A DNA stretch of 43,586 nt from Halarchaeum acidiphilum MH1-52-1 (GTDB taxonomy: Archaea; Halobacteriota; Halobacteria; Halobacteriales; Halobacteriaceae), in contig NZ_BATA01000013.1 of NCBI RefSeq assembly GCF_000474235.1, positions 1 to 43,586 on the forward strand. Reading direction: 5' to 3'. The translations under genes and the position numbers were made by a program. Every line of letters starts with the position of its first letter. The first letter of the stretch is position 1. The notes beneath the pieces are model-generated. The model saw only the letters and a program-made list of their open reading frames with translations. It did no database searches and was not told the DNA's origin. Below, piece by piece: positions 22,771 to 42,031 of this stretch.

Positions 22771-22793
22771 CTTCCTGTTCAGGGTTAGAGTTA

Positions 22794-22914
22794 CTGTTGA
22801 AATCCCTCAGCCGTGACATTGAGAAGAGCTACTCTTCCTCCGGAAATTCACGGACGTGCTGTGAAATTAGATCCTCAGAAAATCACAAGATGGCATGAGG
22901 GTTTCAACAGAGCC
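22794..22914. mobile_element. MITE-like element, left of drmABC
   Basis: About 121 bp bounded by CTGTTGAAATCCCTC (22794-22808) and GAGGGTTTCAACAGAGCC (22897-22914), imperfect terminal inverted repeats. A related element at 29615-29737 has matching ends in inverted orientation, with some internal similarity. No ORF. It lies between the DrmE-like gene and the drmA promoter. Confidence 0.6.
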
Positions 22915-23016
22915 AAATCATCATATATTTGTCTATTATATGTGGTGTTTCGGTAGTAAATCGGTGAGAAGAACCCGAACTTCATACTCAATGCGAATTA
23001 CCAACTCAACTAAAGG

Positions 23017-23022
23017 TTTATA
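23017..23022 (+). promoter_or_regulatory. TATA box of drmA
   Basis: TTTATA, preceded by purine-rich AAAGG (BRE-like), ends 24 nt before the GTG of drmA. This spacing puts the transcript start at or next to the start codon, so drmA is probably leaderless. Confidence 0.6.
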
Positions 23023-23046
23023 CAGTCGGGCTGAAAATCCGAGGTT

Positions 23047-26712: not shown

Positions 26713-26728
26713 CGGAGGATACGAGACA

Positions 26729-28621
26729 ATGAGCTATGAGAATGCGGAGATGGAGCGCGGTGTCGCACAGGTGCTGGCGAACTTCGTGCCGGGCGACTTG
26801 TTCGACTACGCCCGGTACGGGATCACCATGATGGTTGACGAGTGGCAGCACCAGGAGATGGACGTCGACCAACGGCGGATCGCTAACCACGTTCAGGGAC
26901 GTGTGTCGAGCTTCCCGAACGGAAATCGGCCACCGTGGTCGGAGCTTGACGACGCGCAGATCGACGTGTTCCGACCCCAGAAAGTGTACGGCGAGATATT
27001 CCCGACGACGCTCGTCTGCAAGCGCTGTGATCACGTTGAATATCGAAACACGTCAAAGGGACTCCAGTACACTAACGGTCGGTGCACTCGGTCGGGATGC
27101 AACGGGGACCTCCAGCAGGTCTCCTTCGTGGCGACGCACGACTGCGGTGAGGTCTTCACGCTGAAACCGTCCGGCTGTGGCGCTCACGACCACCAAGATA
27201 TCCGCCTCAACCGTGGTGTACCCGAGGACATGCGGACGTGGTCGTTCGAGTGTGGGATCTGCCATCAGCGGACCGGCGACCTCTCGGCATACTGCGATCG
27301 TTGTGACGAGTGGGTCCAGTCGATACAGCCGACGAACGCGGGGTCGGTCTTCTACCCCCAGCGGGAAGTCATCGTCGACATCCCACATGTGGACGTTGAC
27401 GAGGACGCGATTCCATACGGAGAAGAGTGGACGCGTATCCTTATGGCGGCACACCTTGACGACGTCGATCTAGAGGAGAGTGGCGTCACACTGGAAGACA
27501 TCGCCACGAGTACCCAGTCCGAAGAAGACGTACTAGAGGACCTATACGAACAGTTCGGTCGAGAGTGGGTTGAGGAGAACAAGGAGCAGGCACTCCAGAT
27601 CGCGATGGGGAACTCCCCGACGAAGGGGACCGTCGTGGCACAAAATCGGGATCGTGTAGAGTTACCGGCAGAGCATCGCGGAGAGGACGTCGGGAGCGCG
27701 TACACCGTGGTCGCCCACGAACTCTTCACGTTCTTGCGCTCAACGCGTGGGTACGAAGGCGGATCGATGCGCGAGAACGTTGAGGACCGCCATCCGACCC
27801 CGCGCCCACTCTCGACGTTCGTGGACGACGACGAGTTCGTCGAGAAGTACCCGCAGTCGAAGCTCTACCGAGAGAAACTTGACCGAGTCAACGTCACAGA
27901 CGCGTGGATCGTAGACAACTTCCCACTCCTGAACACGGTCTTCGGATACACGCGCGACTCGCCAGACGCGAGTGAGACGACGCTCCGAGCCTTTGACCAC
28001 CCGTGGGGACTTGACGCGCTTACCGTGTGGGGTGACCGCTCCCCGTCGGAGGCGATCGTCCTCGAACTTGATCGGGGGGCGATCGTTGAGTGGCTCGTGG
28101 AGAACGACTACCTGGATTCGTCAGAGGCTCCTGACACGGACGACGACACCGAACTGAAGCGGTGGTTCTTGAACAACTTCGACGCCACACAGACACAGAA
28201 CCCATTCGCACCCATTGAGGACGAACTCACGAACATCGTCTACCGTCTCGTCCACTCTAGCAGCCACGCTCTGATGAATACGGCTAGTGAACAGTGTGGA
28301 CTTGACACCGACAGCATCTCCGAGCTCCTACTCCCGACGGTCCCGGCGATCGTGCTCTACGCTCAGAGTATGGAACACTTCGCTCTCGGTGGGATGTTCA
28401 CGTTGTTCAAGACCCGACTTCACCCCTGGATTGACGACGCGGTTGACCACGCGTCGCAGTGCATCTACGACCCCGCGTGTCTCGAAGACGACGAGGGCGC
28501 GGCCTGCCATGCGTGTCTCCACGTCAGTGAGTTCACGTGCGAGTACTACAACGGTGCACTTGACCGAGAGCTGCTGGTCGGTGGCGACGAACACACGCCG
28601 TTCTGGGACGTCCAGAGGTAG
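26729..28621 (+). CDS. drmB: DISARM protein DrmB (DUF1998)
   Basis: A 630-aa protein with GGAGG about 10 nt before its ATG. N-terminal zinc-ribbon cysteines (CKRCDHVEY...CTRSGCNG; CGICHQ...CDRCDEW), then the C-terminal DUF1998 region: HSSSHALMNTASEQCGL, ELLLPTVPAIVLYAQ, FALGGMFTLF, and a Cys cluster (QCIYDPAC...CHACLHV...TC). DrmB partners DrmA. drmC begins 4 nt after its stop, so drmABC form one operon. Confidence 0.88.
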   Translation: MSYENAEMERGVAQVLANFVPGDLFDYARYGITMMVDEWQHQEMDVDQRRIANHVQGRVSSFPNGNRPPWSELDDAQIDVFRPQKVYGEIFPTTLVCKRCDHVEYRNTSKGLQYTNGRCTRSGCNGDLQQVSFVATHDCGEVFTLKPSGCGAHDHQDIRLNRGVPEDMRTWSFECGICHQRTGDLSAYCDRCDEWVQSIQPTNAGSVFYPQREVIVDIPHVDVDEDAIPYGEEWTRILMAAHLDDVDLEESGVTLEDIATSTQSEEDVLEDLYEQFGREWVEENKEQALQIAMGNSPTKGTVVAQNRDRVELPAEHRGEDVGSAYTVVAHELFTFLRSTRGYEGGSMRENVEDRHPTPRPLSTFVDDDEFVEKYPQSKLYREKLDRVNVTDAWIVDNFPLLNTVFGYTRDSPDASETTLRAFDHPWGLDALTVWGDRSPSEAIVLELDRGAIVEWLVENDYLDSSEAPDTDDDTELKRWFLNNFDATQTQNPFAPIEDELTNIVYRLVHSSSHALMNTASEQCGLDTDSISELLLPTVPAIVLYAQSMEHFALGGMFTLFKTRLHPWIDDAVDHASQCIYDPACLEDDEGAACHACLHVSEFTCEYYNGALDRELLVGGDEHTPFWDVQR

Positions 28622-28624
28622 TCT

Positions 28625-29508
28625 GTGAGCGACCGAGGGTTCAACGACGACCCGGACTTCACCGTAGCTCGTGGAGTATCGGTGCCCGTCATCGTCGCTC
28701 TCCGAGACTACTTCGCCGAGAATCCGTCTGAACGAATCGAGATCACCCGCCAGGACCTTGAATCGTTTGCTGGGATATCGATTGCCAAACCAGAAGCTGA
28801 ATCGATATTCACCGGACTAGTGCTGAACGGTGTGGCGGAGCAGGCTAGCCGTGGACGGTCGTTCGCGGACTACTCGTTCGTCGTTGACTGCGAGCGCGCC
28901 GCGCGAGTGTTCGAAGGACAACGCATCGCTCGCGCTGCATTAGAGGAGGTGGGAGTTCTTGAGCGCGATACCGAGGCCGACACCGAGCTGACTGCGACGT
29001 TCCCGGCGGGAGTCGATCAATCCGCTATGCAGTCCGTTCGCCCGCTCTCAAGTGACCTCCGTCGGATGATGTTCGACGCGGACACCATCGTCCGGATCGC
29101 GAATCCGTACTTTGACCCGAAGACATCCGCGGTCGGTGACATCGCGGGTCTCGCGAACCGCGGTATCGATACCCGAATCCTCACCCGTGAGACCAGGTCC
29201 GACGACGAACGGCTCCGAGCTGCGTTGAACGCGATCTACGACCGTATCGATCCGCCGAACCGGCACCTCCTTGAAGTTAGAGATCTCTACGAGCGTGACG
29301 AGACGGGGCGACAGGCCTACGCGACGCACGCCAAGGTCACGATCGCCGATCGCGACGTCTGCTACGTTGCAGTGCCAACCTGACCGAGACGAGCCTCTCG
29401 TCGAACTTCGAGCTGGGCGTCCTACTCCACGGTGAGAACGTTAACGTCGCGATTGGCGTGTTCGACACCGTCTTCGACTTCGCTCGGGAGGTTTCACTGC
29501 CGCTCTAA
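28625..29508 (+). pseudogene. drmC: DISARM nuclease DrmC (PLD family), frameshifted
   Basis: GTG start 28625. The frame runs 252 codons through the phospholipase-D HKD motif (HAKVTIAD: H-x-K-x4-D) and CYV, then meets a stop at 29381-29383. In the +2 frame the expected continuation SANLTETSLSSNFELGVLL appears at once and ends with TAA 29506-29508. Inserting one G at about 29369 (GTTGC to GTTGGC) restores CYVGSANLTETS and a 294-aa protein. The deletion removes the strand after the HKD motif and the C-terminus. DrmC is reported as non-essential in characterised DISARM. Confidence 0.85.
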
Positions 29509-29537
29509 GAGTGCCTGTCGACAGATCCTGATTATGT

Positions 29538-29555
29538 CCCCATCTCTCGGTGGGG
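29538..29555 (+). terminator. Hairpin after drmC
   Basis: CCCCA-N8-TGGGG about 30 nt after the drmC stop. A second short dyad, CTGAATAATTCAG, follows at 29583-29595. Possible transcript end for drmABC. Confidence 0.3.
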
Positions 29556-29614
29556 TAAAGGGGTAGCTCTGCATCGTCAGTCCTGAATAATTCAGAGCTA
29601 AATATAGACGACTT

Positions 29615-29737
29615 GGCTCTGCTGAAACCCTCTCCGCGTCTCGCGGTTTCGTATACGTACTGGTTCCAGTTGGTCTGGCCGTGAGCAGCCAGGAGAGCAT
29701 TCCTCTTGGATGTCAATAGCGAGGGATTTCAACAAAG
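29615..29737. mobile_element. MITE-like element, right of drmABC
   Basis: About 123 bp from GGCTCTGCTGAAACCCTC (29615-29632) to GAGGGATTTCAACAAAG (29721-29737). The ends match, in inverse order, those of the 22794-22914 element; GGCTCTG(C/T)TGAAACCCTC is shared at 17 of 18 positions. Together they bracket drmABC. No transposase; probably mobilised by an unrelated full-length insertion sequence. Confidence 0.6.
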
Positions 29738-29795
29738 ACGACGACTTGTATTTTTGGGAGGGGCACGATGGAAACCCCCTGTTTATGATATTTAT

Positions 29796-30310
29796 CTACC
29801 GCGACCATTCGTCTTTAGCTAATACTCACAGTAATACCGAACAGCTGCGTTTCACAGGCGAATTACGTCGCAACACGTTCGATACGGGGCAAAAACACGG
29901 TTTTCAGACGCCGTGGACTGCCTATTCTCAGTAGCAAGAGCGTCTCAGTCCCTGGTTTCGCTCTTCTAATACTATAGGGAATAATACAGAGTTGGAATAT
30001 TACTACTAGTCTTCAGCGTGTCATAGAAGTCTTCACATGGTACAGTCATATTCATTATCTTTTCAGAGAGTAACAGACGTAAAAGAGCGTGCACCAGGTG
30101 CACGACTCTTAGAATCGTTCAAAGATAGGGTTTTTATTCCCGTATAGTGACTATTCTTGCTCAGTTGGCGTTATTCGACGTATCGACCGTGATTTCTATA
30201 GAGCCGCAGACAGCAGGCTTGGAGCCGGTAACGCTGAATCCGTCGATAGCCATGAGAACAGTTCTATGACACCCTCACTAGTCTTAGCTAAAGACGAATG
30301 CTACCGCGAC
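29796..30310. mobile_element. 495-bp non-autonomous transposon with 10-bp target duplication
   Basis: Perfect 17-bp terminal inverted repeats, CATTCGTCTTTAGCTAA (29806-29822) and its complement (30284-30300), bound a 495-bp A+T-rich unit. CTACCGCGAC occurs directly outside both ends (29796-29805 and 30301-30310): a 10-bp target-site duplication. Long duplications like this fit IS4-type insertion sequences. No transposase gene, but a 36-codon ATG frame (30037-30147, reading ...VKERAPGARLLESFKD...) may be a transposase remnant. Confidence 0.8.
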
Positions 30311-30422
30311 ATTTATCCCTCCCCTTAGCCAATCGGCAGTGTATGGGTCTAGTCATCACACAGCGCGAGGAGAGAGGACTACTCCGGTGTGTTCGAACAG
30401 AAGGTTCGGCATCTCCAGAGGG

Positions 30423-32783
30423 ATGACTGGTGGAGACCCCCCGATTCAACGGGTTTCGGTCGATCGAGTAGACGCCCGTGGCATCGGTCACCATGAATCG
30501 AGCGATGCCAGCCCGCTCCGGCTCGGCCCTCTCCCCGAGTCGGTCGTTGGTGAATCGCTACTCGTCGAAATCTGGGGGCTAGGAGAAGGACGAGTAGTAG
30601 ACCAGCGATACAGACCTGAGATAGAACCGCCGGCAGTCTCGATGGATCGATCTATGGTCGAATCGATTCTAGCACCTGCCGGTGAGCTGTCGTCTGGCGA
30701 CTACGTCCTCGGTATCACTGAGGGATTCCGTGGTGACGTAACGCCTCGGATGATCGCTGGTGGATACCGGATCCAGATTCCCGGAACTGATGAAAAGAAC
30801 GTCGTACTAGCACGCGTCAAGGAGGCACGACGAAAGACCTTCGGTGCTAACGAAGCGAGCGCAGTTCGAGTCGACTCTCCGTCCCTCTTCCGGACGACTA
30901 CTGAACGCGGTATCGGTCTCCGTCGCTTGATGGCAGACGGTAAGTGGCGTGAACCCATCGTTAGCGAATTAGAGTTACGGACGCTCGAAGAGTTAGTTGA
31001 GCGCGTTGATAATGGTCGCTCCGCCTCAATCCTCTACCCTGGGTTTGATCCCGACGTCTCTCTCCAGGCAGCGATCGAACTCCTCTACCACGCCCGACCG
31101 AGGTCAAACGTCGCATTGTTGACCTCTGGAAGTTCGATCCAGTGGGGTCAGAAAGGAGAGATCCGAGACGCGTACCGTGGATACGGCCTATCGACCGATC
31201 CCGTCCCAAGTGAAGACGTCATACCCCTCAATCGAGTGTTCTCTCACGGCTACGTTCACGGCGGTGAGATGAAGACGTCGTCCGGGGCGTTGCTTGATCG
31301 TCACCTCATCCTGACGAAGGATAATGGCGAACTCTCCGCGATACCTAACCTCACGGCCATAGTCGTGGATTACACGTCAAGGAAGCCGGGCATAGACGAG
31401 GAGACCATTGAACGTGTCCGTGAGCGGTTCCCGAACGTCCCGATCGTTTCCATCGGGAGTGTCTTTACGAAGAACGAACGGGATGGTGTCCCCCGATACG
31501 CTCCTCCCGCCTTCTTTGAGAACGAGGAGACATTCCCATCGATCTCGGACATTGGGGATGTGATGGGAGCGTACGATCCACAGGTCGGGCGGACGACGTC
31601 CGGGTTACGGACGACAAAGTACACGAACGACTCGTCCGGGAGCCCGACATCACCGATCACTACCGACCAGCTCGGCCTCCTCCGAGAACCCACGATGGCC
31701 GTCACGCCGGTCGATAGTGGTGATCTATCCCGTTGGTTTGAGCTCGCGACCGAGAGATTCGAAGAGTTACTCGATAGTGGCGTTGATCGAGCAGGTCACA
31801 AGGTCTACTCGAACGAGATGTTCTACGAGCGACTTCCCGTGCCCGTGGAACGGTACAACGATTGGATTCGAGACGAGTGGGACGCCGGAAAGCGGTTCGT
31901 CCCGGATACGACAGACGCCGTACTTGACGACTTGGAGACGTACGGAGGGAAGATAGACGACCTCCAAGCACCGGCACACGTATTCGCTGCGCACAAGGCT
32001 CTCTCCGAAATCGACTCGGCCCTCCGAGAAGAGAACCCACTCTTCGAGCGCGTCTGTGAGGAAGTCACGGATGCGCTCGATAGAGGCTACCGCCTCGGAG
32101 TCTTCTGTCCACGAAAGAGTTGGTCCCACGTCCTCCAGGAGGCGTTAGTGGAGCGTGGGTTCTCCACAGACGCGATCGGATCGAACGTCGTACTGCTTGA
32201 TCCAGACTCGATCCGGGACACACCTCCTTGCCATCGGCTCGTCTTCACAGGTCCGCAACGTCCCCAGTACGCGGGGTTCTACTTCCACCCACGCGCGACC
32301 GAGGTCGTAGTGTATACTTACGACGGACGGTGGGAAGGGACTGTGGCTAGACACGCTCGCGAGTATCGCCAGCGGTTGAACGTCGCCACGTCGGGATCGA
32401 ATGCAGAGCCGTATCCGGTCCCTGACTGGGGAGACGCGACAGACGACGTGACTTCCGACGTGGCCGATGTAGAGACATCAGAAGACGAAGAATCGGAGAG
32501 CGAGCCTAGTACGGACACCACTAGCAGTTCCAGTCGCAGGGAAGCGATAGTCGAGAGCGATAGCATAGACGACGAAGAGCTCCACCGACTAGCTCAATTG
32601 GTGGAACACGCACCGACGAAGAACCGGGAGCTAGCTGACCTGTGGGGATACGACTCCGGTTCCGAGGTCTACCAGTACTTGTCGACGCACCTGCGCGAGT
32701 ACTACGAGCGTAACGAGGACAAGCTGATAGTCCCGACTGCGGAAGGAGAGCAACTCGTAGAGGAGCGTACCGCGAAGCGGTGA
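30423..32783 (+). CDS. Second DrmE-like protein
   Basis: A 786-aa protein; I prefer ATG 30423, preceded by GAGGG, over the GTG at 30339. It is a clear paralogue of the 19996-22770 product. Shared stretches: SGSSIQWGQKGEIRDAYRGY, FYERLPVPVERYNDWIRDEW, REENPLFERV, YRLGVFCPRKSWSHVLQEAL and YAGFYFHPRATEVVVYTYDG. It lacks HEAT repeats. A low-complexity acidic linker (~690-725) precedes a C-terminal winged-helix-like tail (LVEHAPTKNRELADLWGYDS). Intact, so it could replace the frameshifted paralogue. Confidence 0.65.
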   Translation: MTGGDPPIQRVSVDRVDARGIGHHESSDASPLRLGPLPESVVGESLLVEIWGLGEGRVVDQRYRPEIEPPAVSMDRSMVESILAPAGELSSGDYVLGITEGFRGDVTPRMIAGGYRIQIPGTDEKNVVLARVKEARRKTFGANEASAVRVDSPSLFRTTTERGIGLRRLMADGKWREPIVSELELRTLEELVERVDNGRSASILYPGFDPDVSLQAAIELLYHARPRSNVALLTSGSSIQWGQKGEIRDAYRGYGLSTDPVPSEDVIPLNRVFSHGYVHGGEMKTSSGALLDRHLILTKDNGELSAIPNLTAIVVDYTSRKPGIDEETIERVRERFPNVPIVSIGSVFTKNERDGVPRYAPPAFFENEETFPSISDIGDVMGAYDPQVGRTTSGLRTTKYTNDSSGSPTSPITTDQLGLLREPTMAVTPVDSGDLSRWFELATERFEELLDSGVDRAGHKVYSNEMFYERLPVPVERYNDWIRDEWDAGKRFVPDTTDAVLDDLETYGGKIDDLQAPAHVFAAHKALSEIDSALREENPLFERVCEEVTDALDRGYRLGVFCPRKSWSHVLQEALVERGFSTDAIGSNVVLLDPDSIRDTPPCHRLVFTGPQRPQYAGFYFHPRATEVVVYTYDGRWEGTVARHAREYRQRLNVATSGSNAEPYPVPDWGDATDDVTSDVADVETSEDEESESEPSTDTTSSSSRREAIVESDSIDDEELHRLAQLVEHAPTKNRELADLWGYDSGSEVYQYLSTHLREYYERNEDKLIVPTAEGEQLVEERTAKR

Positions 32784-32966
32784 AGACCGCTTTCATTTCG
32801 ACTCGTATACTGTCGTCACGAACTCAGAAGACGCCCTCGTGAAGATCGTCGCATGACCATTCTCTCGATTAGTGCCACGTCTACGCCACCACCGTGGCGA
32901 ATCACCGAAACACCACGATTGACACATTTATGTACCTGCTGTAAGATGATACGTTAGAAACGACGT

Positions 32967-34898
32967 ATGGGAACGGAGTCTACACTACCCGACCGCTGGT
33001 TCTTCGAGGAGCAACCGGCGGGTCGGTCTCACAGCCCAGGGCTCCTCCAGAAGAAGACCCTGGACCGGAGCCTCGATACGTTCGTCAGGGAGGTGCTCCA
33101 GAACGTCAACGACGCTGGTCTCAACAACGACGACCCCGTCCGAGTCACGTTCCGGCTAGTTGATCTCACCGACGACGAAGAATTCCGTGATGCTATCCGC
33201 TGGGACGACCTACTGACGCACGTCCGCGGTGCGGCGAAGGAACAGAACGGGCCTGGCCTCGAAGAGTACCTCGAATACCTCGACGACGGAGGCTCTTTCC
33301 GCGTCCTCGTCGTTGAAGAGGAGAACACGACCGGCATACAGGGAGACGAAATCTCCCCCGGGACGGACTACACCGCCCTCGTTCGGGACCCCGGTAGTAG
33401 CAACAAGACTGGAGAGACTGCCGGTCGTCACGGCCTTGGGAGTTCGGTCCTCTGGGTCGCATCTGGACTTCAGACGGTCTTGTTCAACTCGGTGCTAGCC
33501 GACGAAGCGCCCGGACAGGAGTCCCCCCGGTTCATCGGTCGATCGTTCATCCCTACCCACGAGACTCCGGACGGAGCGTGGCACGAGAACGAAGGCTGGT
33601 TTGGATCTCCAACCGGGTTCGACGACGACGACTTGCAACGGCCCGAATCGGTCTGGGACGGCCCCGCACGCGATCTCGCGAGCCGTCTTTGTCTCTCGCG
33701 TCCGGACGTCTCCGGAACGAGTACGGCAATCGTCGGGTTCCGTGACCCCTCTGACCCATCGATGTCTGACCAGCCGAATCCGCCGGAGATCGCAGATACG
33801 TTTGAGGAGACCGCTGCAGAGTACTTCTGGCCGGCTATCAGCCAAGGTGACCTCGAAGTCCATCTCGACATGGAGGGTGACGAGCGGACGGTTGACTCCG
33901 ACACGATTGAGGACTTTGACTCTGTCGCCCCGTTCATCAAGTGCTACGAGGGCCGGACGGACGCACCCAAGACACTCGGCGGCCCAGGACAAGTCGCTAG
34001 TCTCGAATTTCCGTACGAGATCCGGAGTAAGCGGAAGGAACAGACGCCGTCCGAAGGGCAGATCTCGCTCGCGGTCCGGCGAGCGTACCCCGACGAGGAG
34101 GAACGCATTGGCGACATCGCGATGTTTCGAGGCTCGGGAATGGTGGTGAAGTACAAACCGGCTCACCACCTCGGTTTCTCCGGGAAGTTCCACGCCGTGC
34201 TAGCCTGCGGGAACGCCCGCTCTGGGCCCAACGAGGACCCGACGCCAGCAGACCGGGCTATCGAGGAGTTCCTCGCAATGGCCGAACCACCGGCTCACGA
34301 CGAGTGGTACGGGAAGAACAACGACGAATTGAAAGGAGCCTACGAGGACGGCAGCGTGAAGTGCGTTAGGAAGCTTAAGACGGGCCTTCTCCGCGAATAC
34401 CTCTCGGACTTACTCTACGGTCACGAGGACGAAGGTGGAGAGACGCTGAATCCAGGTCGGTCGATACTCCCACGTACACGGAGTTCCCGCGGTCGCTCGG
34501 AACGCGAGGGAACACCGTCTATTCCGAGCCCCTTCGACTACACTGTCGACTCGGAGGTCGTCCACGACCACTGGGTCTTCCGTGGTGTCGTCGGTCCCGA
34601 CGAGGGCGTCGGCGACGTCGTCGATTGGTCGGTCACCATCGGTCTGAAGGCGATGTACGAGGACAACAGCGAAGCCGACGAGATACCGATCGCCGACGTG
34701 GACCTCCGTGGGTCTCCCGATGCGACGTACTCTATCTCCGACGGCGAGGCAGAGGTGATAGTCGACTCTGCAGTGGATGAGATCCGATTCACGATCGAAT
34801 CCGAGCGGTTCCGAGACACCGACCCCAGGCTCGGGGACGTCGGTGAGACGAAGTTCAAGATCACGGACGGCACGATCCACGTTGAGGAGGGTGAGTGA
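32967..34898 (+). CDS. GHKL-type ATPase of a three-gene cassette
   Basis: A 643-aa protein. An N-terminal GHKL (Hsp90/MutL-type) ATP-binding fold is indicated by N-box REVLQNVNDA (41-50), a G1-like VEEENTTGI (116-124) and G2 GRHGLGSS (153-160). The usual D-x-G-x-G of G1 is altered, with EENTTG in its place. The C-terminal ~130 residues are beta-rich. The stop overlaps the next gene's GTG by 4 nt, so the three genes to 36636 form one operon. Similar ATPases occur in anti-phage systems. The cassette matches no named system I know. Confidence 0.7.
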   Translation: MGTESTLPDRWFFEEQPAGRSHSPGLLQKKTLDRSLDTFVREVLQNVNDAGLNNDDPVRVTFRLVDLTDDEEFRDAIRWDDLLTHVRGAAKEQNGPGLEEYLEYLDDGGSFRVLVVEEENTTGIQGDEISPGTDYTALVRDPGSSNKTGETAGRHGLGSSVLWVASGLQTVLFNSVLADEAPGQESPRFIGRSFIPTHETPDGAWHENEGWFGSPTGFDDDDLQRPESVWDGPARDLASRLCLSRPDVSGTSTAIVGFRDPSDPSMSDQPNPPEIADTFEETAAEYFWPAISQGDLEVHLDMEGDERTVDSDTIEDFDSVAPFIKCYEGRTDAPKTLGGPGQVASLEFPYEIRSKRKEQTPSEGQISLAVRRAYPDEEERIGDIAMFRGSGMVVKYKPAHHLGFSGKFHAVLACGNARSGPNEDPTPADRAIEEFLAMAEPPAHDEWYGKNNDELKGAYEDGSVKCVRKLKTGLLREYLSDLLYGHEDEGGETLNPGRSILPRTRSSRGRSEREGTPSIPSPFDYTVDSEVVHDHWVFRGVVGPDEGVGDVVDWSVTIGLKAMYEDNSEADEIPIADVDLRGSPDATYSISDGEAEVIVDSAVDEIRFTIESERFRDTDPRLGDVGETKFKITDGTIHVEEGE

Positions 34899-35902
34899 CC
34901 GTGCGAGAGATCCGCCTCAACAAGAATCTTACCTATCGGACGTTCCCGTACCGGTGTGAACCGGACTCACTAGAGTTCCGGATCGACCAGTTCGCCGTAG
35001 ACGACGGGTCGTTCACGGAGCCCGAGCAACCACACTACTTGGACCTCGACGAGTACCGAGGGTGGGATACGCTCCACCTCCGCATCGAGATCCGCATCCC
35101 CGACGGTCTACTTGGGAAGGTCTTCCCAGAGTTCGACGACATCCCCGGAATGCTCGTCGTCGCCGCACACTGCCGTACGACGTATCTCCGGGAAGGGATC
35201 GTCGTCGAAGACGAGCCCATTCGGTCAGGCACGTACACTCGCGACGTCGAATTGTCGTCGGACTCCGTCGCAGGGTCCCTCGACCTCCGTCCCCTCCTCG
35301 TCCGGACGACGGACACGGATGCAGGCGACGAGTACGCCACGGAAGCGGGTGTATTCGTGGCCGACGGTCCGCGTGGACGCGTCGACTTCGAGGACGACAA
35401 CGCGGGTGACGAGGGCCTCCTGGAAGTCCGAACACGAACATTCAGTGAAGAGGGAGAGGATAGTCGGTTCCCACCGGAGGACCGTCTCCACTACCTTGAC
35501 CTAGAGAGTGATCCGGGGCAGCCGATCGTGTGGGTCAACGACGACCACACACAGGTCGCGAGTCTGATGGCAGGTGACGGCGGGAGCCAGTACGACCGCC
35601 TCACGCGCGATCTCGTGTGGAACCAAGTCATGTCGCCGGTGTGGACGCGTCTCGTCACCATCGCGGCGATTGAGTACGACGCCGACACCGACGAGTGGGA
35701 CCCCGAATGGCAAGCAGCAGTATTCGAGGATCTCCACGATGAACTCTACGACGACCTGACACCGGAGAAAGCTGCCGAGCGTCTGCAAGAAGACCTGACC
35801 AAAGCACCCGTAGACGCGACGAGACGGGTCGAAGACGCCGTCCAGAGTGTCCTTGATCCGGCGACCTGCTACATGAAACATATCCAGGGATTGACCGACT
35901 GA
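34895..35902 (+). CDS. Uncharacterised middle gene of GHKL cassette
   Basis: A 335-aa protein from GTG 34895 (or GTG 34904, MREIRLNKNL). The N-terminal ~240 residues are beta-rich and acidic (YLDLDEYRGWDTLHLRIEIR; FPEFDDIPGMLVVAAHCRTT). The C-terminal third is helical (WNQVMSPVWTRLVTIAAIEY, DLTPEKAAERLQED). No nuclease or nucleotide motif seen. It overlaps both neighbours (GTGA upstream; TGATG downstream), implying a fixed-ratio complex with the GHKL ATPase and the DUF6339-like protein. Confidence 0.7.
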   Translation: MTVREIRLNKNLTYRTFPYRCEPDSLEFRIDQFAVDDGSFTEPEQPHYLDLDEYRGWDTLHLRIEIRIPDGLLGKVFPEFDDIPGMLVVAAHCRTTYLREGIVVEDEPIRSGTYTRDVELSSDSVAGSLDLRPLLVRTTDTDAGDEYATEAGVFVADGPRGRVDFEDDNAGDEGLLEVRTRTFSEEGEDSRFPPEDRLHYLDLESDPGQPIVWVNDDHTQVASLMAGDGGSQYDRLTRDLVWNQVMSPVWTRLVTIAAIEYDADTDEWDPEWQAAVFEDLHDELYDDLTPEKAAERLQEDLTKAPVDATRRVEDAVQSVLDPATCYMKHIQGLTD

Positions 35903-36636
35903 TGAGCGAAGACCGACTTACACGACTTGACTCCGGAGCACGGACACTTCTCGAAGACGACCCCGGATTCCTCCGTGGTGAGGAGGGATCGAAGTGGCTT
36001 AACGAGGACGACCTGAGCCGATACACCCACGAGACCGATTACACTGCCGACTTAGACTCTCTCGGTGACCGGCTGCAGGATATCGTCGACGAGTACTCGA
36101 AGTACACGGGCGAGATGGACACGAAGGCTGCGAAGGCGGTCCACGAGGAGATCGACCTATCCCGCGCTGCGGCGAGCGACTCGGGAATCTGGAACGCTCT
36201 CGCGATGAAATACTATCCGTGGTTCGTCCGTCATCGGTGGAAGTACGAGAGCAAGACGGGGATGAAGAAGAAGTTCTGGACCTACGGTGCCGCGCTGGAC
36301 TCGAACTCCAGTACCTTTGAGCGTCTCTGGTGGATCGCCGAGCTCACCCACGAGGGGGACGACTATACGAACACTCGTCGTGCGTTTAGGAGCCGACGGT
36401 TCTGCTTCCGGGTGTTCGACATCCAGCTCGGGCGCTACAAGCCAGCGGCCCTCGCCCTCCTTGACGTACTCTACGACGAAGAGAATGGGTCGTTCGTGTC
36501 TAACGACATCATCGACGGTACTGTGAAACGATTCCGACGCGCGGGTTCGACAGTGCCCCTGGAGGCCAGAACTCAAGACGAACTCGTGCCGATGATCCAG
36601 GGGATTCGAGAGGACGTTAAGGAGGCGACCGAATAG
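35902..36636 (+). CDS. DUF6339-like protein of GHKL cassette
   Basis: A 244-aa helical protein. The segment SGIWNALAMKYYPWFVRHRW, then FERLWWIAELTHEGDDYTNT and RVFDIQLGRYKPAALALLDVL, resembles a family I recall as DUF6339, seen near defence genes in bacteria. It starts at ATG 35902, overlapping the previous stop by one base. Basic and aromatic surface residues would suit nucleic-acid or partner binding. It converges with the methyltransferase gene 6 nt away. Confidence 0.65.
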   Translation: MSEDRLTRLDSGARTLLEDDPGFLRGEEGSKWLNEDDLSRYTHETDYTADLDSLGDRLQDIVDEYSKYTGEMDTKAAKAVHEEIDLSRAAASDSGIWNALAMKYYPWFVRHRWKYESKTGMKKKFWTYGAALDSNSSTFERLWWIAELTHEGDDYTNTRRAFRSRRFCFRVFDIQLGRYKPAALALLDVLYDEENGSFVSNDIIDGTVKRFRRAGSTVPLEARTQDELVPMIQGIREDVKEATE

Positions 36637-36642
36637 CCTCGC

Positions 36643-37380
36643 CTATTGGTTCGAGAAATCCGCTAGGTCGGCGTTCTCCATCCGCGACCGACGTTCGTCC
36701 ATCTCGGCGTCGTAGTTAGTGTAGTCCCGAACACCCTGTGTAGCGTCGGTAGCGGTGAGCCACGCGCGGACGAGGTGTCGGACGAACGGTGCAGGGATGC
36801 AGTTCTTCGCCATGTGTTCCTTCGGATACTTGCCCGTCGGATACCCTTTCGCTGCTGCCCACCACTCTGGAGACCGTTCACTGTAGAAGAAGGGAGAGGT
36901 CTCGGTTTTGCTCCCGAGGTGCCCGATCGTCGGTGGTTGGTTGACCGGGAACGACGTCTCGAACGCCCGCTCGTATCGGATGGGGAGCCCAAACATGCGC
37001 CCTTCGAGGACTGTCTTCTTGTGTTCCTTCAATGGTGCCGTCGGCTTGTTCTCAATGATGTAGTGCGTACCGTAGCGCCGTCCGATCTCGCGTGCTTCGT
37101 CTATGAGTTCAGGAGCGTCGCCGTCCTTGTTCGCACTCGGCATATCACTCCACGCCGTGCAAGGTGGGTGGGCGACTACGAGATCGAACGTCCCGTATTC
37201 GAAAGGTAGTTTCTCAGGATCCGATGCGTCTCCCCGAATCACGTGGCTGTGGTCGTACGCCCTCGGATTGAGCGTGTATCGCGTCACGGTACCGAAATCC
37301 TGTAATACCTCTGCCTCGGTTCCGTGATCGGCGAAGATGTGGAGGATCTGTCGGTCTGGGCCAGAATCGTATGATGACAT
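36643..37380 (-). CDS. Compact phage-type C5 cytosine methyltransferase
   Basis: A 245-aa protein from ATG 37380 (MSSYDSGPDRQILHIF); a 47-codon upstream extension is rejected. C5-MTase elements appear in order: SAM loop HIFADHGTEAEVL, catalytic HPPCTAWSD (C74), IIENKP (ENV motif, E110-N111), MFGLPIRYERAF (motif VIII-like) and NCIPAPFVRHL (motif X-like). The target-recognition region is very short. Such minimal enzymes occur in haloviruses and prophages. No cognate nuclease is adjacent. It could methylate host DNA for the DISARM genes or be a phage-derived protector. Confidence 0.72.
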   Translation of the reverse strand: MSSYDSGPDRQILHIFADHGTEAEVLQDFGTVTRYTLNPRAYDHSHVIRGDASDPEKLPFEYGTFDLVVAHPPCTAWSDMPSANKDGDAPELIDEAREIGRRYGTHYIIENKPTAPLKEHKKTVLEGRMFGLPIRYERAFETSFPVNQPPTIGHLGSKTETSPFFYSERSPEWWAAAKGYPTGKYPKEHMAKNCIPAPFVRHLVRAWLTATDATQGVRDYTNYDAEMDERRSRMENADLADFSNQ

Positions 37381-37627
37381 GGTTAGATGCTCTCTCCGAC
37401 GACCGATACGGGGGTATACTGCCGACTCTCGTGAGTCGTATCTCGAGAGGGTGAGGAGACACGTAGACGTTCCCGCAGACGACGTAGATCGTCCGTCCAC
37501 AGTCGCAGTGACTGTGACCACCTCGTCGTCAGACCCGTAGCGATCACGTTAGTCTCTCTTTGCACCACCACCAGTAAGAGTGCGTCGCCTGAGATACGAC
37601 TTGGCCTCAGGATATCCTTAGAGGATT

Positions 37628-38260
37628 CTATCGGCGGGCAGCTGCATAGTAGGTACAGTATTCTGGTGCGAAGCAAATCTCACACCGTGGGTCGCCGGTA
37701 CAGACGGCTGCCCCGAAGTCGAGGAGTGCGAGATTGTACGTCCGTGCTTCGTCCTCAGGAAGTAGATCGTGAGCGAACGCCTCCTGGTCTGACGGCGTAT
37801 CTGGCCACCGCGCACCGAATACGCGTCCGTAGATCCGTTTGACGTTCCTGTCCAGGACGGGGAGTGCCTCACCACACGCGAAGCACACCGTCGCGTTCGC
37901 GACGTACGGACCGACACCGGGGAGTTCCATAAGCTCGTCCGGGTCTCTCGGCAACGAATCGTACTCCGCGGCGATCTGTTTCAGCGACGCCGCTCGCATG
38001 TTGTGGAATCCGATCGACTCTATAGCCGCTGCGAGTGTTTCCTCGTCGGTCTCCTTGATCGCGGCTAGCGATGGGTACCGTTCGACGAACTCGGGGAACA
38101 GCCGATTGACGTTGTCGGCTGGCGTCTGCGTCAGGAAGAACTCTGCGACGAAGACCTCGTAGAACGTCGCGTCCGTGTCTCGTCACGGGTACTCTCGTAG
38201 ATTCTCGTCGGCCCACGTGAGTAGGTCGTTCCGGAAGCGTCGTATCGTCTCTCGGTCCAC
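37628..38260 (-). pseudogene. Mig-type G/T mismatch glycosylase (HhH-GPD), nonsense mutation
   Basis: The frame from GTG 38260 reads MDRETIRRFRNDLLTWADEN then LREYP, TGA (38183-38185), RDTDATFYEVFVAEFFLTQT. The stop stands where the family has Trp (YPWR); one base change, TGG to TGA, explains it. Helix-hairpin-helix LPGVGPY with Tyr as in Mig enzymes, catalytic Asp in PVLDRN, and a C-x5-C-x2-C-x5-C iron-sulphur loop (one residue shorter than usual). Family members repair T:G from 5-methylcytosine deamination. The part after the stop could restart only at ATG 37999 or similar, losing a third of the protein. Confidence 0.85.
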
Positions 38261-38970: not shown

Positions 38971-40992
38971 TCAGTTGAACACGTCGCCGGTCTCTATGTC
39001 GTTGATGAGACGCGAGACGCGTCCCGCGTCACGATCGCGTTCGACGTGCTGGTCGTACATAGAGGCAGTCTGTTCCAAGAGGTCGGAGTATCGTCGGACG
39101 ACGACACCGTTCCGTGATAGGAGCCCTTCGAGGTCGTCCCAGGTATCCATCTCTGGGACGACGAACACGACCGTCGGGTCTCGCTCGGGTCGGTCAGCCT
39201 CTTTGAGGACTGTCTTGAGGGCGACCCGGTACACGTCGACGACTTCGAGCAGCTCGTTCTGTGCGGGCTCCGTCGGATGGCGGAGACTCACGAGCGCGTA
39301 TCCGGTCGCCGTCCGGACGCACCGAAAGTGCGCTCCTCTCTCGTCTTCTTCCGCCGCGACGGGCGTTCCTTCTTCGAGGCGTTTCTCCACGGCGTCGCGG
39401 ACGTCGTCGTCGATCGGTGCTCGTTCCCACGACGGATCGAGGAGCCACGGATGGTCGACGAGGTGTCCGTATAGTTCCTCATCTACACCCTGCTGCCGAG
39501 TACGTCTCGCGAACTCGCCGGCGACGTGCTTCCGATGTTTCGCCATCTGGTGGTACTGCGAAGACTCGATATCGTCAAGGTCGGAGAGAACCCGGCGGAC
39601 GGTACGATCGCTCGCGTCGTCAAGCGTCTCCAAGTCGCGGAGATTTTCTTCGTACTTCAGGTTCTCGAAGGCGAGTACCCCGTGCTTGAACAACTCCCGC
39701 CGCTCGTCTTCGTCATCGACGGTCATCTGGTTGATCTTCCCGAACAACTTCTTCGCACGCTCGCGATTGTTCGGCTCCAGACTCTGGTACCACATATCGA
39801 TAGCACTGATCTGCCGTGCTTCCTGCGACCCCTGTTGGTTCCGTAGGTCGTTCCATCGACCAGCGATGTGGTTGAGCTCGACACGGAGCCAGCTGAGCAA
39901 GTCCTGGTACCGTGGGTCCTCCTTAACGACGTCCTCGCGGTTCGAAGTCGCGATGTCCTCAGCGTCGTCGTCGTCAAGGAAGTCGGCGTGGATCTCGCCG
40001 ACGAGATACTTCGTGAACATCCGACTGTCGTTGAAGCTCTCTAGGAGGTCTGGCTTCGCCATCCGGCCACGGATCATGAGCGAGACCTTGTTCAGGTCGT
40101 CCGAACTAGCGCCCTCGCCTGGGTAGTCTTCGACGAGGTCGTTCGGTTTCTCCACCGTGCCGATCCAACCGTGGATCCGATGACCGTCTTCGGTCTCACC
40201 GCTGCGTGGCTCGTGGCCTTCGAGTCTCGACTCGCGGCAGTGTTCGACGTACTCATCGTCCTCAAACGTCCAGAGGAACTGAAGTTTGTGGAAGTAGTCT
40301 CGATCGGTGGCGGTGACCTCTTCACCGTTGATACTCACCGAGAAGTTGAACTCCGAGTCGAGGATACTGAACCGGCGCGCTAGCCGTTTCCGGAGTGCGC
40401 TCTCGGTCGTATGGACGCGCTTCGTGAGGTCCTCAAGGACGATCTTCGTACCACTGTTGAGGTCGTCCGGGAAGTCGTTGAGTACCGTCGGGGTGTACGT
40501 GCGCTTCTCGGATGCTGCGCCTACCTCTTCGGAGCCGATCGCGTCCTCAATTTCTCCGACGTCCATTCGGAAGGCATTCTCGTCACCGTCTTTGATCGTG
40601 TAGACCTTGACTGTCTCCGCGATCGACAGGAGTGAGAGTTTCCCGATACCCTTCCGGCCCATCACCGGTCGGTTGTGTTCCGGTGTCCGATTTGGACGCT
40701 CCTCGTCTTGGCGACGCTGGTAACCGACGTGGAGATAGCGATTATTCACGTCGTGTGCGTCCATCCCGTGTCCGTCGTCTACGATTGTTACCCGCCCTTC
40801 GTCTGCGTCAATGTCTACGGAGACATTCTCGGCATCGGCGTCCCAGGCGTTAGCGACCGCTTCCGAGAGGACTGCTGGAACGTTGCTGTAGAGATTTAGC
40901 CCGAGATGATTGAGAACGTTAAGACTAAGAGACATCTCGTACGGTGTCTCCTCCTCGTCAACTACCTCCGTCGGCTGATCAGGCTGCGACAT
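38971..40992 (-). CDS. MORC/MutL-like GHKL ATPase of restriction-modification module
   Basis: A 673-aa protein from ATG 40992 (MSQPDQPTEVVDEEE); a longer start lies inside the methyltransferase gene. GHKL motifs are canonical: N-box LSEAVANAWD (42-51), G1 DDGHGMD (72-78), G2 GRKGIGKLS (112-120). The C-terminal ~150 residues (LYGHLVDHPWLLDPSW...FRCVRTATGYALVSLRHP) recall Shedu/DUF4263-type nuclease folds, but the usual E-x-K is replaced by VSLRH, so this domain is probably inactive. It overlaps the C5 MTase gene by 14 nt. MORC-type ATPases are known partners of C5 MTases in R-M-like loci. Confidence 0.82.
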   Translation of the reverse strand: MSQPDQPTEVVDEEETPYEMSLSLNVLNHLGLNLYSNVPAVLSEAVANAWDADAENVSVDIDADEGRVTIVDDGHGMDAHDVNNRYLHVGYQRRQDEERPNRTPEHNRPVMGRKGIGKLSLLSIAETVKVYTIKDGDENAFRMDVGEIEDAIGSEEVGAASEKRTYTPTVLNDFPDDLNSGTKIVLEDLTKRVHTTESALRKRLARRFSILDSEFNFSVSINGEEVTATDRDYFHKLQFLWTFEDDEYVEHCRESRLEGHEPRSGETEDGHRIHGWIGTVEKPNDLVEDYPGEGASSDDLNKVSLMIRGRMAKPDLLESFNDSRMFTKYLVGEIHADFLDDDDAEDIATSNREDVVKEDPRYQDLLSWLRVELNHIAGRWNDLRNQQGSQEARQISAIDMWYQSLEPNNRERAKKLFGKINQMTVDDEDERRELFKHGVLAFENLKYEENLRDLETLDDASDRTVRRVLSDLDDIESSQYHQMAKHRKHVAGEFARRTRQQGVDEELYGHLVDHPWLLDPSWERAPIDDDVRDAVEKRLEEGTPVAAEEDERGAHFRCVRTATGYALVSLRHPTEPAQNELLEVVDVYRVALKTVLKEADRPERDPTVVFVVPEMDTWDDLEGLLSRNGVVVRRYSDLLEQTASMYDQHVERDRDAGRVSRLINDIETGDVFN

Positions 40993-42031
40993 CGTGTTCC
41001 TCCAGATGCGAGACGATACTCTGTCCAACGACCTCAGCTAGCCTGACTGGCACGGCGTTCCCTACGAACTTCCCGATGGTCTTGAACTCCACGCTATCAC
41101 CATTCGCGACGAACTCGTAGTCTTCGGGAAAGGTCTGCAGTATCGCCCCCTCCCGTAGTGAGAGTGCCCGATCCTGTTCCGGGTGGCCGAAACGTCCGCT
41201 TCCGTAGTTATAGAACTGCGTCGTCACGGTCGGCGAGGGGGCATCCCACTCCATGCGACCATAAACGGAGTCGAAGGATTGGCCGCTCTCTTTCTTGTGG
41301 CAGTCGAGACGGATGTCGGGATTCCAGTCGCGCCACGTTCCGCCGGGTTTCGACTGACGGATACGTTCGAGATTTCGGTCTACGAGCGTTCGTGATTGAT
41401 GAAGTGGATCCGATTCGTGCGTCTCGCCGGCTTCCACTTCGGGTAGGTCTCCGATGGCATCGCGCACCGTCGGGTAGTCCATCGGAGCGTGTGTCGGGTC
41501 TTTGAGTGAGATGTCGCCGAGCCTTGACGCGAGGAGGACGAACCGACGACGACGTTGTGGGATTCCATATGCGGGACACTCTACAGTGTCGAACCACATC
41601 TGATACCCCTCTCGAAATAACGTATTCATGAAGTCAGAGTAGACGGGTTCGTTCGTTACTTCGGGGACGTTCTCCATTGAGACGACTGCGGGTCTGATGT
41701 CCTCTACGATGTCACCGAACTTCGTGAGGAGGGTGTAGTCGTCTCGTTCAGAGACGTCAGCACCGTTGTTCAAATTCGAGAAGGGTTGGCATGGAGCGCA
41801 CCCAGATAGAATTTTCGCAGCCCCGTCGGGATAGAGAGATTCAACATCTCCACCGTTCATATCCGAGACATTACGATTTACGAATTCGGCAGTGTTGTTC
41901 AACTCATATGCGTGCCGGCAATCGGGATTCAATTCGACCCCTGCAGACACGGGGACTCCAGCTCGTTCTAGCCCGTGAGTAAGTCCCCCGACACCACAGA
42001 ACAAGTCCACGGCTGCCGCATCCGTTTCCAT
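40979..42031 (-). CDS. C5 cytosine DNA methyltransferase
   Basis: A 350-aa Dcm-type enzyme with all motifs: DLFCGVGGLTHG (I, 9-20), GCAPCQPFS (IV, Cys81), MENVPEV (VI, 119-125), QRRRRFVLLASR (VIII), PSPTVTTQFYNYGSGRFGH and LREGAILQTFPEDYEF (IX), GNAVPV (X). The target-recognition domain (~residues 190-265) is short. It leads an operon with the MORC-like ATPase. It may serve both that module and DISARM, whose class 2 form needs a C5 MTase (DrmMII). It has a leaderless-type promoter with a dyad upstream. Confidence 0.93.
   Translation of the reverse strand: METDAAAVDLFCGVGGLTHGLERAGVPVSAGVELNPDCRHAYELNNTAEFVNRNVSDMNGGDVESLYPDGAAKILSGCAPCQPFSNLNNGADVSERDDYTLLTKFGDIVEDIRPAVVSMENVPEVTNEPVYSDFMNTLFREGYQMWFDTVECPAYGIPQRRRRFVLLASRLGDISLKDPTHAPMDYPTVRDAIGDLPEVEAGETHESDPLHQSRTLVDRNLERIRQSKPGGTWRDWNPDIRLDCHKKESGQSFDSVYGRMEWDAPSPTVTTQFYNYGSGRFGHPEQDRALSLREGAILQTFPEDYEFVANGDSVEFKTIGKFVGNAVPVRLAEVVGQSIVSHLEEHDVAA

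What the first reader, a model, noticed from the sequence alone, without database searches (positions are those of the whole stretch)
32967..36636. Three-gene overlapping GHKL-ATPase cassette that may be an undescribed defence system
A GHKL ATPase with an atypical G1 motif, an uncharacterised beta-rich/helical protein and a DUF6339-like protein are joined by 4-nt and 1-nt overlaps, so they very probably form a complex. They sit inside a defence island between DISARM and an R-M-like module. No nuclease is visible in the cassette, so its effector mechanism would be new or supplied by neighbours.
Basis: inference. Interest (0 to 1): 0.74.

Follow-up and report, generated by a model that had tools for sequence, protein, structure and literature searches.

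The report
GHKL-ATPase trio with cytosine-methylase partners
Three overlapping genes in a salt-loving archaeon form the archaeal branch of a listed but untested defence candidate (PADLOC PDC-M33); they travel with DNA cytosine methyltransferases rather than with the neighbouring DISARM system, so they are probably the attacking half of a methylation-based restriction system that carries no recognisable nuclease of its own.

Summary
The three genes exist exactly as described (32967-34898, 34895-35902, 35902-36636, +). They are not an unlisted system. Genes 1 and 3 match PADLOC PDC-M33A and PDC-M33C; gene 2 is homologous to PDC-M33B by profile comparison. Gene 1 also carries the ExxxH signature of paraMORC2, a GHKL family tied to restriction-modification in 2008. 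I found no published function.

New here: (1) all 61 cassettes in 30 haloarchaeal genomes keep all three genes, often 2-3 cassettes per locus. (2) A C5-methyltransferase, or a minimal methyltransferase family (window 36643-37521), lies within 5 kb of 57/61 cassettes; DISARM is absent from half of the genomes. (3) In 12 loci with both, the methyltransferase tracks the trio (partial r 0.99), not DISARM (0.02), although PADLOC names it DrmMII. (4) The minimal methyltransferase occurs almost only beside the trio, and in haloarchaeal viruses.

Best reading: trio plus methyltransferase is a mobile, 5-methylcytosine-licensed restriction-like unit. The trio is the ATP-driven restricting side; nucleases are exchangeable or perhaps unnecessary. 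A confident model of the PDC-M33B family shows no nuclease fold. Restriction, mark and effector are untested. New variant of a known kind.

The parts
32967..34898 (+). Gene A: GHKL ATPase, PDC-M33A / paraMORC2-like, 643 aa; N-box E42/N46/D49, atypical G1 (E118-x-N-T-x-G-I), G2 GRHGLG, ExxxH motif E440-H444 (then W447)
   Evidence: PDC-M33A 1.7e-22; profile vs bacterial family: 100%, 2e-44; ExxxH definition
34895..35902 (+). Gene B: PDC-M33B homologue, 335 aa; the family model is a fibronectin-III/Ig-like beta part plus a C-terminal helical part
   Evidence: no library hit; profile-profile match to bacterial PDC-M33B 96.5%, 7e-10; AlphaFold model of the bacterial family, pLDDT 88.5
35902..36636 (+). 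Gene C: DUF6339 / PDC-M33C, 244 aa, mostly helical, conserved R-x-WW and T-x(n)-Y-x-x-T
   Evidence: 2.6e-18; 2.2e-12; 99.4%
36643..37521 (-). Likely partner: minimal C5-methyltransferase-like protein (start probably 37380, 245 aa), convergent with gene C with a 6-nt gap; motif IV HPPC and motif VI IEN (PPCQ and ENV in a viral homologue)
   Evidence: phrog_363 DNA methyltransferase 2.8e-7; 22 of 26 genomes with it have it at the trio locus
37628..38260 (-). Remnant of an HhH-GPD (MutY/MIG-type) glycosylase gene, broken by an in-frame TGA at 38183-38185; intact relatives recur beside the trio
   Evidence: (intact relative PF00730 5e-16)
32920..32966 (+). End of the 183-nt gap after the DrmE-like gene, with a TATA-like element (ATTTATGT, about 40 nt before the ATG): the trio probably has its own promoter
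   Evidence: read by eye; inference
38971..41028 (-). Neighbour, not part of the trio: BbrUII/HgiDII-family type II restriction enzyme with its own GHKL domain
   Evidence: (NF050001, 679.1 bits vs cut-off 550)
40979..42031 (-). Neighbour: C5-methyltransferase, presumed partner of the HgiDII-type enzyme (overlapping genes); the only PF00145 protein in this assembly
19996..32783 (+). Neighbour: DISARM (DrmE-like 19996-22770, drmA 23047-26712, drmB 26729-28621, drmC 28625-29383, second DrmE-like 30339-32783)

Best explanation
The trio is the archaeal branch of PDC-M33 and works as the restricting side of a mobile restriction-modification-like unit. A partner cytosine-C5 methyltransferase, in this window most likely the minimal enzyme at 36643-37521, marks the host's own DNA. 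Unmarked incoming DNA is engaged by the A-B-C complex. The GHKL protein A closes on DNA as an ATP-driven dimeric clamp, as MutL and MORC proteins do, and either delivers the DNA to a nuclease encoded nearby (GIY-YIG, DUF262/HNH in relatives) or blocks it by entrapment. Shown here: the trio is one unit; it is homologous to PDC-M33; ATP-site residues are kept; it is tied to C5-methyltransferases by position, exclusivity and co-divergence; it is independent of DISARM; the PDC-M33B family shows no nuclease fold. Inferred: complex formation, protection by the mark, DNA clamping, and the effector.
For: A C5-MTase or minimal MTase lies within 1, 3 and 5 kb of 38, 54 and 57 of 61 cassettes, against 12 for drmA/B/C within 5 kb. 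29 of 30 trio genomes have a PF00145 MTase at the trio locus; the thirtieth, on a short contig, has the minimal MTase. C5-MTases are common in haloarchaea (51 of 70 trio-less genomes), so it is the location that tells. Partner type follows the cassette's clade: divergent MTase in 22 of 23, a GIY-YIG-like gene in operon in 11 of 12; 5 changes against 26.9 on shuffled labels. Divergent MTase and gene A co-diverge (r 0.99) as tightly as A-B and A-C. In 12 loci that also hold DISARM, MTase~A given DrmB is 0.988 (p 5e-4) and MTase~DrmB given A is 0.018 (p 0.38). The minimal MTase is in 26 of 392 genomes, 22 of them at a trio locus (Fisher 1e-25). In Synechococcus the order is A-B-C-C5-MTase in one overlapping operon without DISARM. 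C5-MTase with Vsr is near the trio in Deinococcus, Arthrobacter and Planococcus, and C5-MTase + small gene + A-B-C recurs in Clostridia. Homologues of the minimal MTase in the haloarchaeal viruses HRPV-9, His2 and Hardyhisp2 fit viral self-protection. Iyer et al. place paraMORC2 in R-M systems and propose DNA looping.
Against: Only 18 of 43 bacterial loci with full flanks have a C5-MTase within 10 kb. Bacillaceae loci without one carry SauUSI-type modification-dependent enzymes (10 neighbours), McrBC (4) or other defence genes, and other loci hold N6-adenine R-M, so the tie to 5mC is not universal. Several bacterial loci already have a complete type II system (Sau3AI, AlwI) beside the trio, which would leave it an accessory role. 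Distance co-divergence shows co-inheritance, not a shared reaction; the haloarchaeal loci are horizontally mobile and not fully independent. The window cassette belongs to a clade of nine whose MTase partner varies (minimal enzyme or PF00145). The minimal MTase lacks an obvious target-recognition domain and its activity is unproven. No restriction assay exists.
Confidence: 0.52

Rival explanations
1. The trio is an accessory to whatever restriction system is nearby (type I, II, IV or DISARM), for example a guard that acts when restriction is inhibited or when cut DNA ends appear, and does not itself read the methylation mark.
For: Bacterial trios sit next to very different systems: AlwI-type with adenine MTases, Sau3AI, type I, SauUSI-type, McrBC. 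In the window a complete HgiDII-type R-M and DISARM are both within 10 kb. No nuclease is seen in the trio.
Against: Several lineages have trio plus MTase and no other restriction gene seen at the locus (Synechococcus; divergent-MTase haloarchaeal clade). MTase and trio co-diverge as tightly as the trio's own members.
Confidence: 0.27
2. The trio is a subunit or add-on of class 2 DISARM.
For: DISARM drmB and the trio co-occur far above chance (14 of 30 against 7 of 362 for the close DrmB type, Fisher 7e-13), usually in one locus; in 8 genomes the only PF00145 MTase is at the shared locus, so DISARM may use it.
Against: Half of the trio genomes lack drmB; bacterial loci read here have no DISARM; the MTase tracks the trio and not DrmB.
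Confidence: 0.06
3. A hidden nuclease: PDC-M33C (DUF6339) or the C-terminal part of the GHKL protein is an unrecognised DNase, so the trio is a complete restriction enzyme.
For: DUF6339 keeps invariant polar residues (R, E, D, N, W); its fold could not be modelled (single-sequence model, pLDDT 41).
Against: No PD-(D/E)XK, HNH, GIY-YIG or PLD motif seen in any of the three; the modelled PDC-M33B family has only weak fibronectin-III/Ig-like matches; related cassettes bring a separate GIY-YIG-like gene.
Confidence: 0.13

Closest known systems
PADLOC PDC-M33 (phage defence candidate, genes A-B-C)
   Same: Same three families in the same order; bacterial homologues score 1e-209, 1e-81 and 2e-94; window A and C match directly, B by profile comparison.
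   Different: The archaeal branch is divergent (gene B below PADLOC detection), occurs in 2-3 paralogous cassettes per locus, lacks the ~75-aa gene that precedes A in many bacteria, and is tied to C5-methyltransferases. PDC-M33 has no published function that I could find.
paraMORC2 GHKL family in R-M neighbourhoods (Iyer, Abhiman, Aravind 2008, PMC2292703)
   Same: GHKL followed by an S5-like region with the family's ExxxH motif; bacterial range includes Gram-positives and a cyanobacterium; R-M context with DCM and Vsr genes.
   Different: The text read does not describe the B and DUF6339 partners, haloarchaeal members or the minimal methyltransferase (the figures could not be seen).
DISARM class 2
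   Same: Shares the locus and possibly the methyltransferase in part of haloarchaea.
   Different: No homologous genes; not obligatory; the shared MTase co-diverges with the trio.
BbrUII/HgiDII GHKL restriction enzymes
   Same: GHKL ATPase in a cytosine-methylating restriction-modification system, present in the same window.
   Different: Single-chain enzyme; no profile match between the two proteins.
VcSduA, GHKL-Shedu (PMC12137116)
   Same: GHKL domain proposed to control a defence nuclease.
   Different: Nuclease fused in one protein; none in the trio.

Membership tests
PADLOC PDC-M33 | PDC-M33A gene | tested here: met
   PDLC04582, 1.7e-22 over residues 35-214; profile match over 435 columns, 2e-44
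PADLOC PDC-M33 | PDC-M33B gene | tested here: met
   No direct PADLOC hit; profile-profile match to the bacterial B family 96.5%, 7e-10, with non-matching pairs below 1%
PADLOC PDC-M33 | PDC-M33C gene (DUF6339) | tested here: met
   PDLC04586 2.2e-12; PF19866 2.6e-18
PADLOC PDC-M33 | A-B-C contiguous in one direction | tested here: met
   4-nt and 1-nt overlaps; 61/61 cassettes
paraMORC2 | N-terminal GHKL with ATP motifs | tested here: met
   E42/N46/D49, G2 GRHGLG; G1 atypical family-wide
[quoted passage not shown]
   E440-PPA-H444; E, H and W invariant in the aligned bacterial members; the S5 fold itself was not modelled
paraMORC2 | Direct sequence match to the 2008 family members | not tested
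   The published alignment is a figure and was not readable
DISARM | Obligatory linkage to drmA/B/C | tested here: not met
   15 of 30 haloarchaeal trio genomes have no drmB match; bacterial loci without DISARM
DISARM | Shared descent of the MTase with DISARM core genes | tested here: not met
   Partial correlation MTase~DrmB given A 0.018, p 0.38
Type II-like restriction-modification | Cognate DNA methyltransferase | tested here: met
   Linkage, clade-specific pairing, co-divergence, near-exclusivity of the minimal MTase; for the window's own pair by position and exclusivity only
Type II-like restriction-modification | Endonuclease subunit | tested here: inconclusive
   None recognised in the trio; GIY-YIG-like or DUF262/HNH genes in some relatives
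Type II-like restriction-modification | Cleavage or loss of unmodified DNA | not testable with these tools
   Needs experiment
BbrUII/HgiDII restriction enzymes | Match of gene A to NF050001 | tested here: not met
   No NCBIfam hit for gene A; no profile match

The most novel reading that the evidence does not exclude
A new kind of restriction without an endonuclease of its own: a GHKL-ATPase/beta-sandwich/DUF6339 complex that reads the absence of a cytosine-5 mark and disables DNA by ATP-driven, MORC-like entrapment, with cutting optional and outsourced to whichever nuclease lies nearby. Several such cassettes, an HgiDII-type enzyme and DISARM would share one or two methylation marks in a single locus, and haloarchaeal viruses would carry the matching minimal methyltransferase as counter-defence.
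Probability: 0.2. Interest if true: 0.85.

Novelty: new variant of a known kind. Interest (0 to 1): 0.6.

Why it matters
It turns an unexplained candidate (PDC-M33) into a testable hypothesis with a named partner enzyme, a candidate mark and candidate viral counter-genes. It suggests that PADLOC's DrmMII call in haloarchaea labels an enzyme that descends with another system, so DISARM there may depend on a borrowed methylase. It bears on the 2008 question of what MORC-like ATPases do in restriction systems, from which eukaryotic MORC silencing proteins are thought to derive. If cutting is not needed, it would be a restriction principle outside the present types.

Tried and rejected
Nuclease in gene B: rejected for the family by a confident model with only weak fibronectin-III/Ig-like matches. 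Gene at 38380-38913 as the trio's nuclease (it has an IEIEK stretch like PD-(D/E)XK by eye): rejected, because it is common on haloarchaeal plasmids (46 records), in unrelated settings in the two looked at, and absent from other trio loci. DISARM subunit: rejected. Solved structures: no relative for A, B or C. Viral contigs: no trio homologue found with a bacterial GHKL profile. Other classes of the phylum: no trio in the sample. Minimal MTase against the C5-MTase profile by hhalign: no match; the case rests on motifs, PHROGs and the viral homologue. Literature: no paper with DUF6339 or PDC-M33; paraMORC2 only in the 2008 paper.
Full report
OBSERVATION. The three open frames are real and placed as stated. 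They overlap by 4 nt (34895-34898) and by 1 nt (35902). The trio starts 183 nt after the preceding DrmE-like gene, and a TATA-like ATTTATGT stands about 40 nt before the first ATG, so it is probably its own transcription unit; this is read by eye. Gene A has the GHKL N-box (E42, N46, D49) and a G2 box. Its G1 box is atypical throughout the family, archaeal and bacterial, so this is a family trait and not decay.

IDENTITY. PADLOC profiles match gene A (PDC-M33A, 1.7e-22) and gene C (PDC-M33C, 2.2e-12; Pfam DUF6339, 2.6e-18). Bacterial plasmid homologues are full matches to PDC-M33A, B and C (1e-209, 1e-81, 2e-94). Profile-profile comparison of the haloarchaeal and bacterial families gives 100% (2e-44) for A, 96.5% (7e-10) for B and 99.4% (4e-21) for C, with the cross pairs below 1%. 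Gene A carries an invariant ExxxH (E440-PPA-H444), the motif by which Iyer et al. 2008 characterised paraMORC2, a GHKL family of restriction-modification neighbourhoods in cyanobacteria and Gram-positives (PMC2292703). The finding is therefore a member of a listed candidate, not an unlisted system. No paper in the library names DUF6339 or PDC-M33, and only the 2008 paper names paraMORC2.

UNIT. In 392 haloarchaeal genomes, 30 have gene A. Their loci hold 61 cassettes and all 61 keep A, B and C together in one direction. Most loci hold two or three diverged cassettes; the window's contig ends at 43586, so further cassettes may have been lost, and the rest of this incomplete assembly holds none. 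A second sample at phylum level gave no member outside the haloarchaea, whereas a bacterial profile found 166 relatives, mainly Bacillota; of the 80 kept, 77 have B and 73 have C, some contigs being cut.

PARTNERS. The nearest C5-methyltransferase, either PF00145 or a minimal family, is within 1 kb of 38, 3 kb of 54 and 5 kb of 57 of 61 cassettes; drmA/B/C is within 5 kb of 12. A PF00145 enzyme lies at the trio locus in 29 of 30 trio genomes; the other genome, on a short contig, has the minimal enzyme. PF00145 enzymes are common in haloarchaea in general (51 of 70 trio-less genomes have one), so it is the location and not the presence that is telling. On a tree of gene A, partner type is clade-specific: a divergent MTase in 22 of 23 cassettes of one clade, and a GIY-YIG-like gene in the operon of 11 of 12 of another; the labels need 5 changes against 26.9 when shuffled. 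For 23 pairs, gene A and the divergent MTase co-diverge (r 0.986), as tightly as A with B (0.992) and A with C (0.965).

DISARM. The trio and DISARM drmB co-occur above chance (14 of 30 against 7 of 362 for the close DrmB type), but half of the trio genomes have no drmB. Where both are present, the MTase that PADLOC calls DrmMII (2.6e-255 for the divergent MTase) follows the trio and not DISARM: partial correlation 0.988 (p 5e-4) against 0.018 (p 0.38) in 12 loci. G058, for instance, has a DrmB 2% different from that of G375, while its gene A and MTase are 31% and 28% different and instead resemble those of G037, whose DrmB is 54% different. In eight DISARM-plus-trio genomes, this one included, the only PF00145 enzyme is at this locus, so DISARM may be borrowing the mark. 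In the seven DISARM genomes without the trio, a C5-MTase lies within a few kb of drmB in six.

THE GENE BEHIND THE TRIO. 36643-37521 (-), six bases from gene C, belongs to a family without a Pfam, NCBIfam or PADLOC family match of its own. PHROGs links it to phage DNA methyltransferases (2.8e-7). Its motifs HPPC and IEN correspond to C5-MTase motifs IV and VI, and the homologue in Halorubrum pleomorphic virus 9 reads PPCQ and ENV. Full-length members occur in 26 of 392 genomes, 22 of them at a trio locus (Fisher 1e-25); the eight trio genomes without it have PF00145 enzymes at the locus instead. Viral homologues in HRPV-9, His2 and Hardyhisp2, and in actinophages where they are annotated as DNA methyltransferase, suggest self-protection by the virus. 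That activity is inferred.

DEAMINATION REPAIR. An HhH-GPD glycosylase gene recurs at these loci (24 genes, 23 loci). In Synechococcus the C5-MTase in the trio operon has a C-terminal extension with the cysteine pattern of EndoIII-like enzymes (by eye); Deinococcus, Arthrobacter and Planococcus have Vsr. Such genes fit the repair of deaminated 5-methylcytosine and are an indirect sign that the loci methylate cytosine. In the window the glycosylase gene is broken by a TGA at 38183-38185.

EFFECTOR. The three proteins show no known nuclease motif. A confident AlphaFold model of a bacterial gene B (70 sequences, pLDDT 88.5) shows a beta-sandwich part and a helical part with only weak fibronectin-III/Ig-like matches (TM about 0.25). 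DUF6339 could not be modelled. Related cassettes have a GIY-YIG-like gene (invariant GLY, Y-x-G, R, E, N; by eye, no Pfam match) or a DUF262/HNH gene as a close neighbour. Iyer et al. propose that such GHKL proteins loop DNA between recognition and cleavage sites; C. elegans MORC-1 entraps DNA (abstract of PMC8277788). I therefore propose an ATP-driven clamp with an exchangeable or dispensable nuclease.

LIMITS. In bacteria the tie to C5-MTases is weaker: 18 of 43 loci with full flanks. Bacillaceae loci without one often carry SauUSI-type enzymes or McrBC, and some loci carry adenine R-M. A general accessory role near restriction systems is therefore the main rival. Co-divergence proves co-inheritance only. 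Nothing here shows restriction, methylation or a complex experimentally.

VERDICT. Real; already listed as a candidate, but functionally unexplained. Best placed as the restricting side of a cytosine-methylation-licensed unit that is independent of DISARM. New variant of a known kind; interest 0.6.

Noticed in passing
window 37628-38260 (-): HhH-GPD (MutY/MIG-type) glycosylase gene interrupted by a single in-frame TGA at 38183-38185 where relatives have Trp; decay, a deamination-like change or an assembly error.
   Followed up: partly
window 38971-42031 (-): Complete BbrUII/HgiDII-type R-M: GHKL-containing REase (NF050001, 679 bits) overlapping a C5-MTase gene by 50 nt.
   Followed up: partly
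window 19996-22770 and 30339-32783 (+): Two related DrmE-like proteins flank drmABC; the second has a C-terminal DUF5797 domain. Both score weakly with current DrmE models.
   Followed up: no
window 38380-38913 (+): 177-aa protein with an IEIEK stretch like PD-(D/E)XK nucleases (by eye), found on 46 plasmid records, mostly haloarchaeal, not tied to the trio.
   Followed up: partly
L184 1357-2055; L187 148-753: Haloarchaeal viruses HRPV-9 (ORF25) and His2 (ORF7) encode homologues of the minimal methyltransferase next to the trio; annotated as hypothetical.
   Followed up: partly
PADLOC PDLC02651 (DrmMII) versus L048 12520-13635: The DrmMII model fits the trio's divergent methyltransferase almost perfectly, also in loci without DISARM; the label is probably misleading in haloarchaea.
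   Followed up: yes
L072 3895-5820 (Synechococcus elongatus plasmid): C5-MTase with a C-terminal extension that has an EndoIII-like cysteine pattern, in one operon with A-B-C.
   Followed up: partly
L079 7643-7876, L076 7728-7958 and about 30 other bacterial loci: A conserved ~75-aa gene (liGNLaNrnNYeY) directly precedes PDC-M33A in many bacteria and has no family; possible fourth component.
   Followed up: no
L121 13419-16211, L143 13425-15833 and similar: A protein of about 800-1200 aa often follows PDC-M33C in Clostridia-type loci; family not identified.
   Followed up: no
L102 13582-16321, L096, L098, L104 and other Bacillaceae: SauUSI-type PLD-helicase (mREase_IV), often with a 108-aa gene before it, repeatedly close to the trio.
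   Followed up: partly
L052 10589-12600 (G003, record 215588-217500): A further GHKL-domain gene with a downstream 253-aa gene sits between the cassettes.
   Followed up: no
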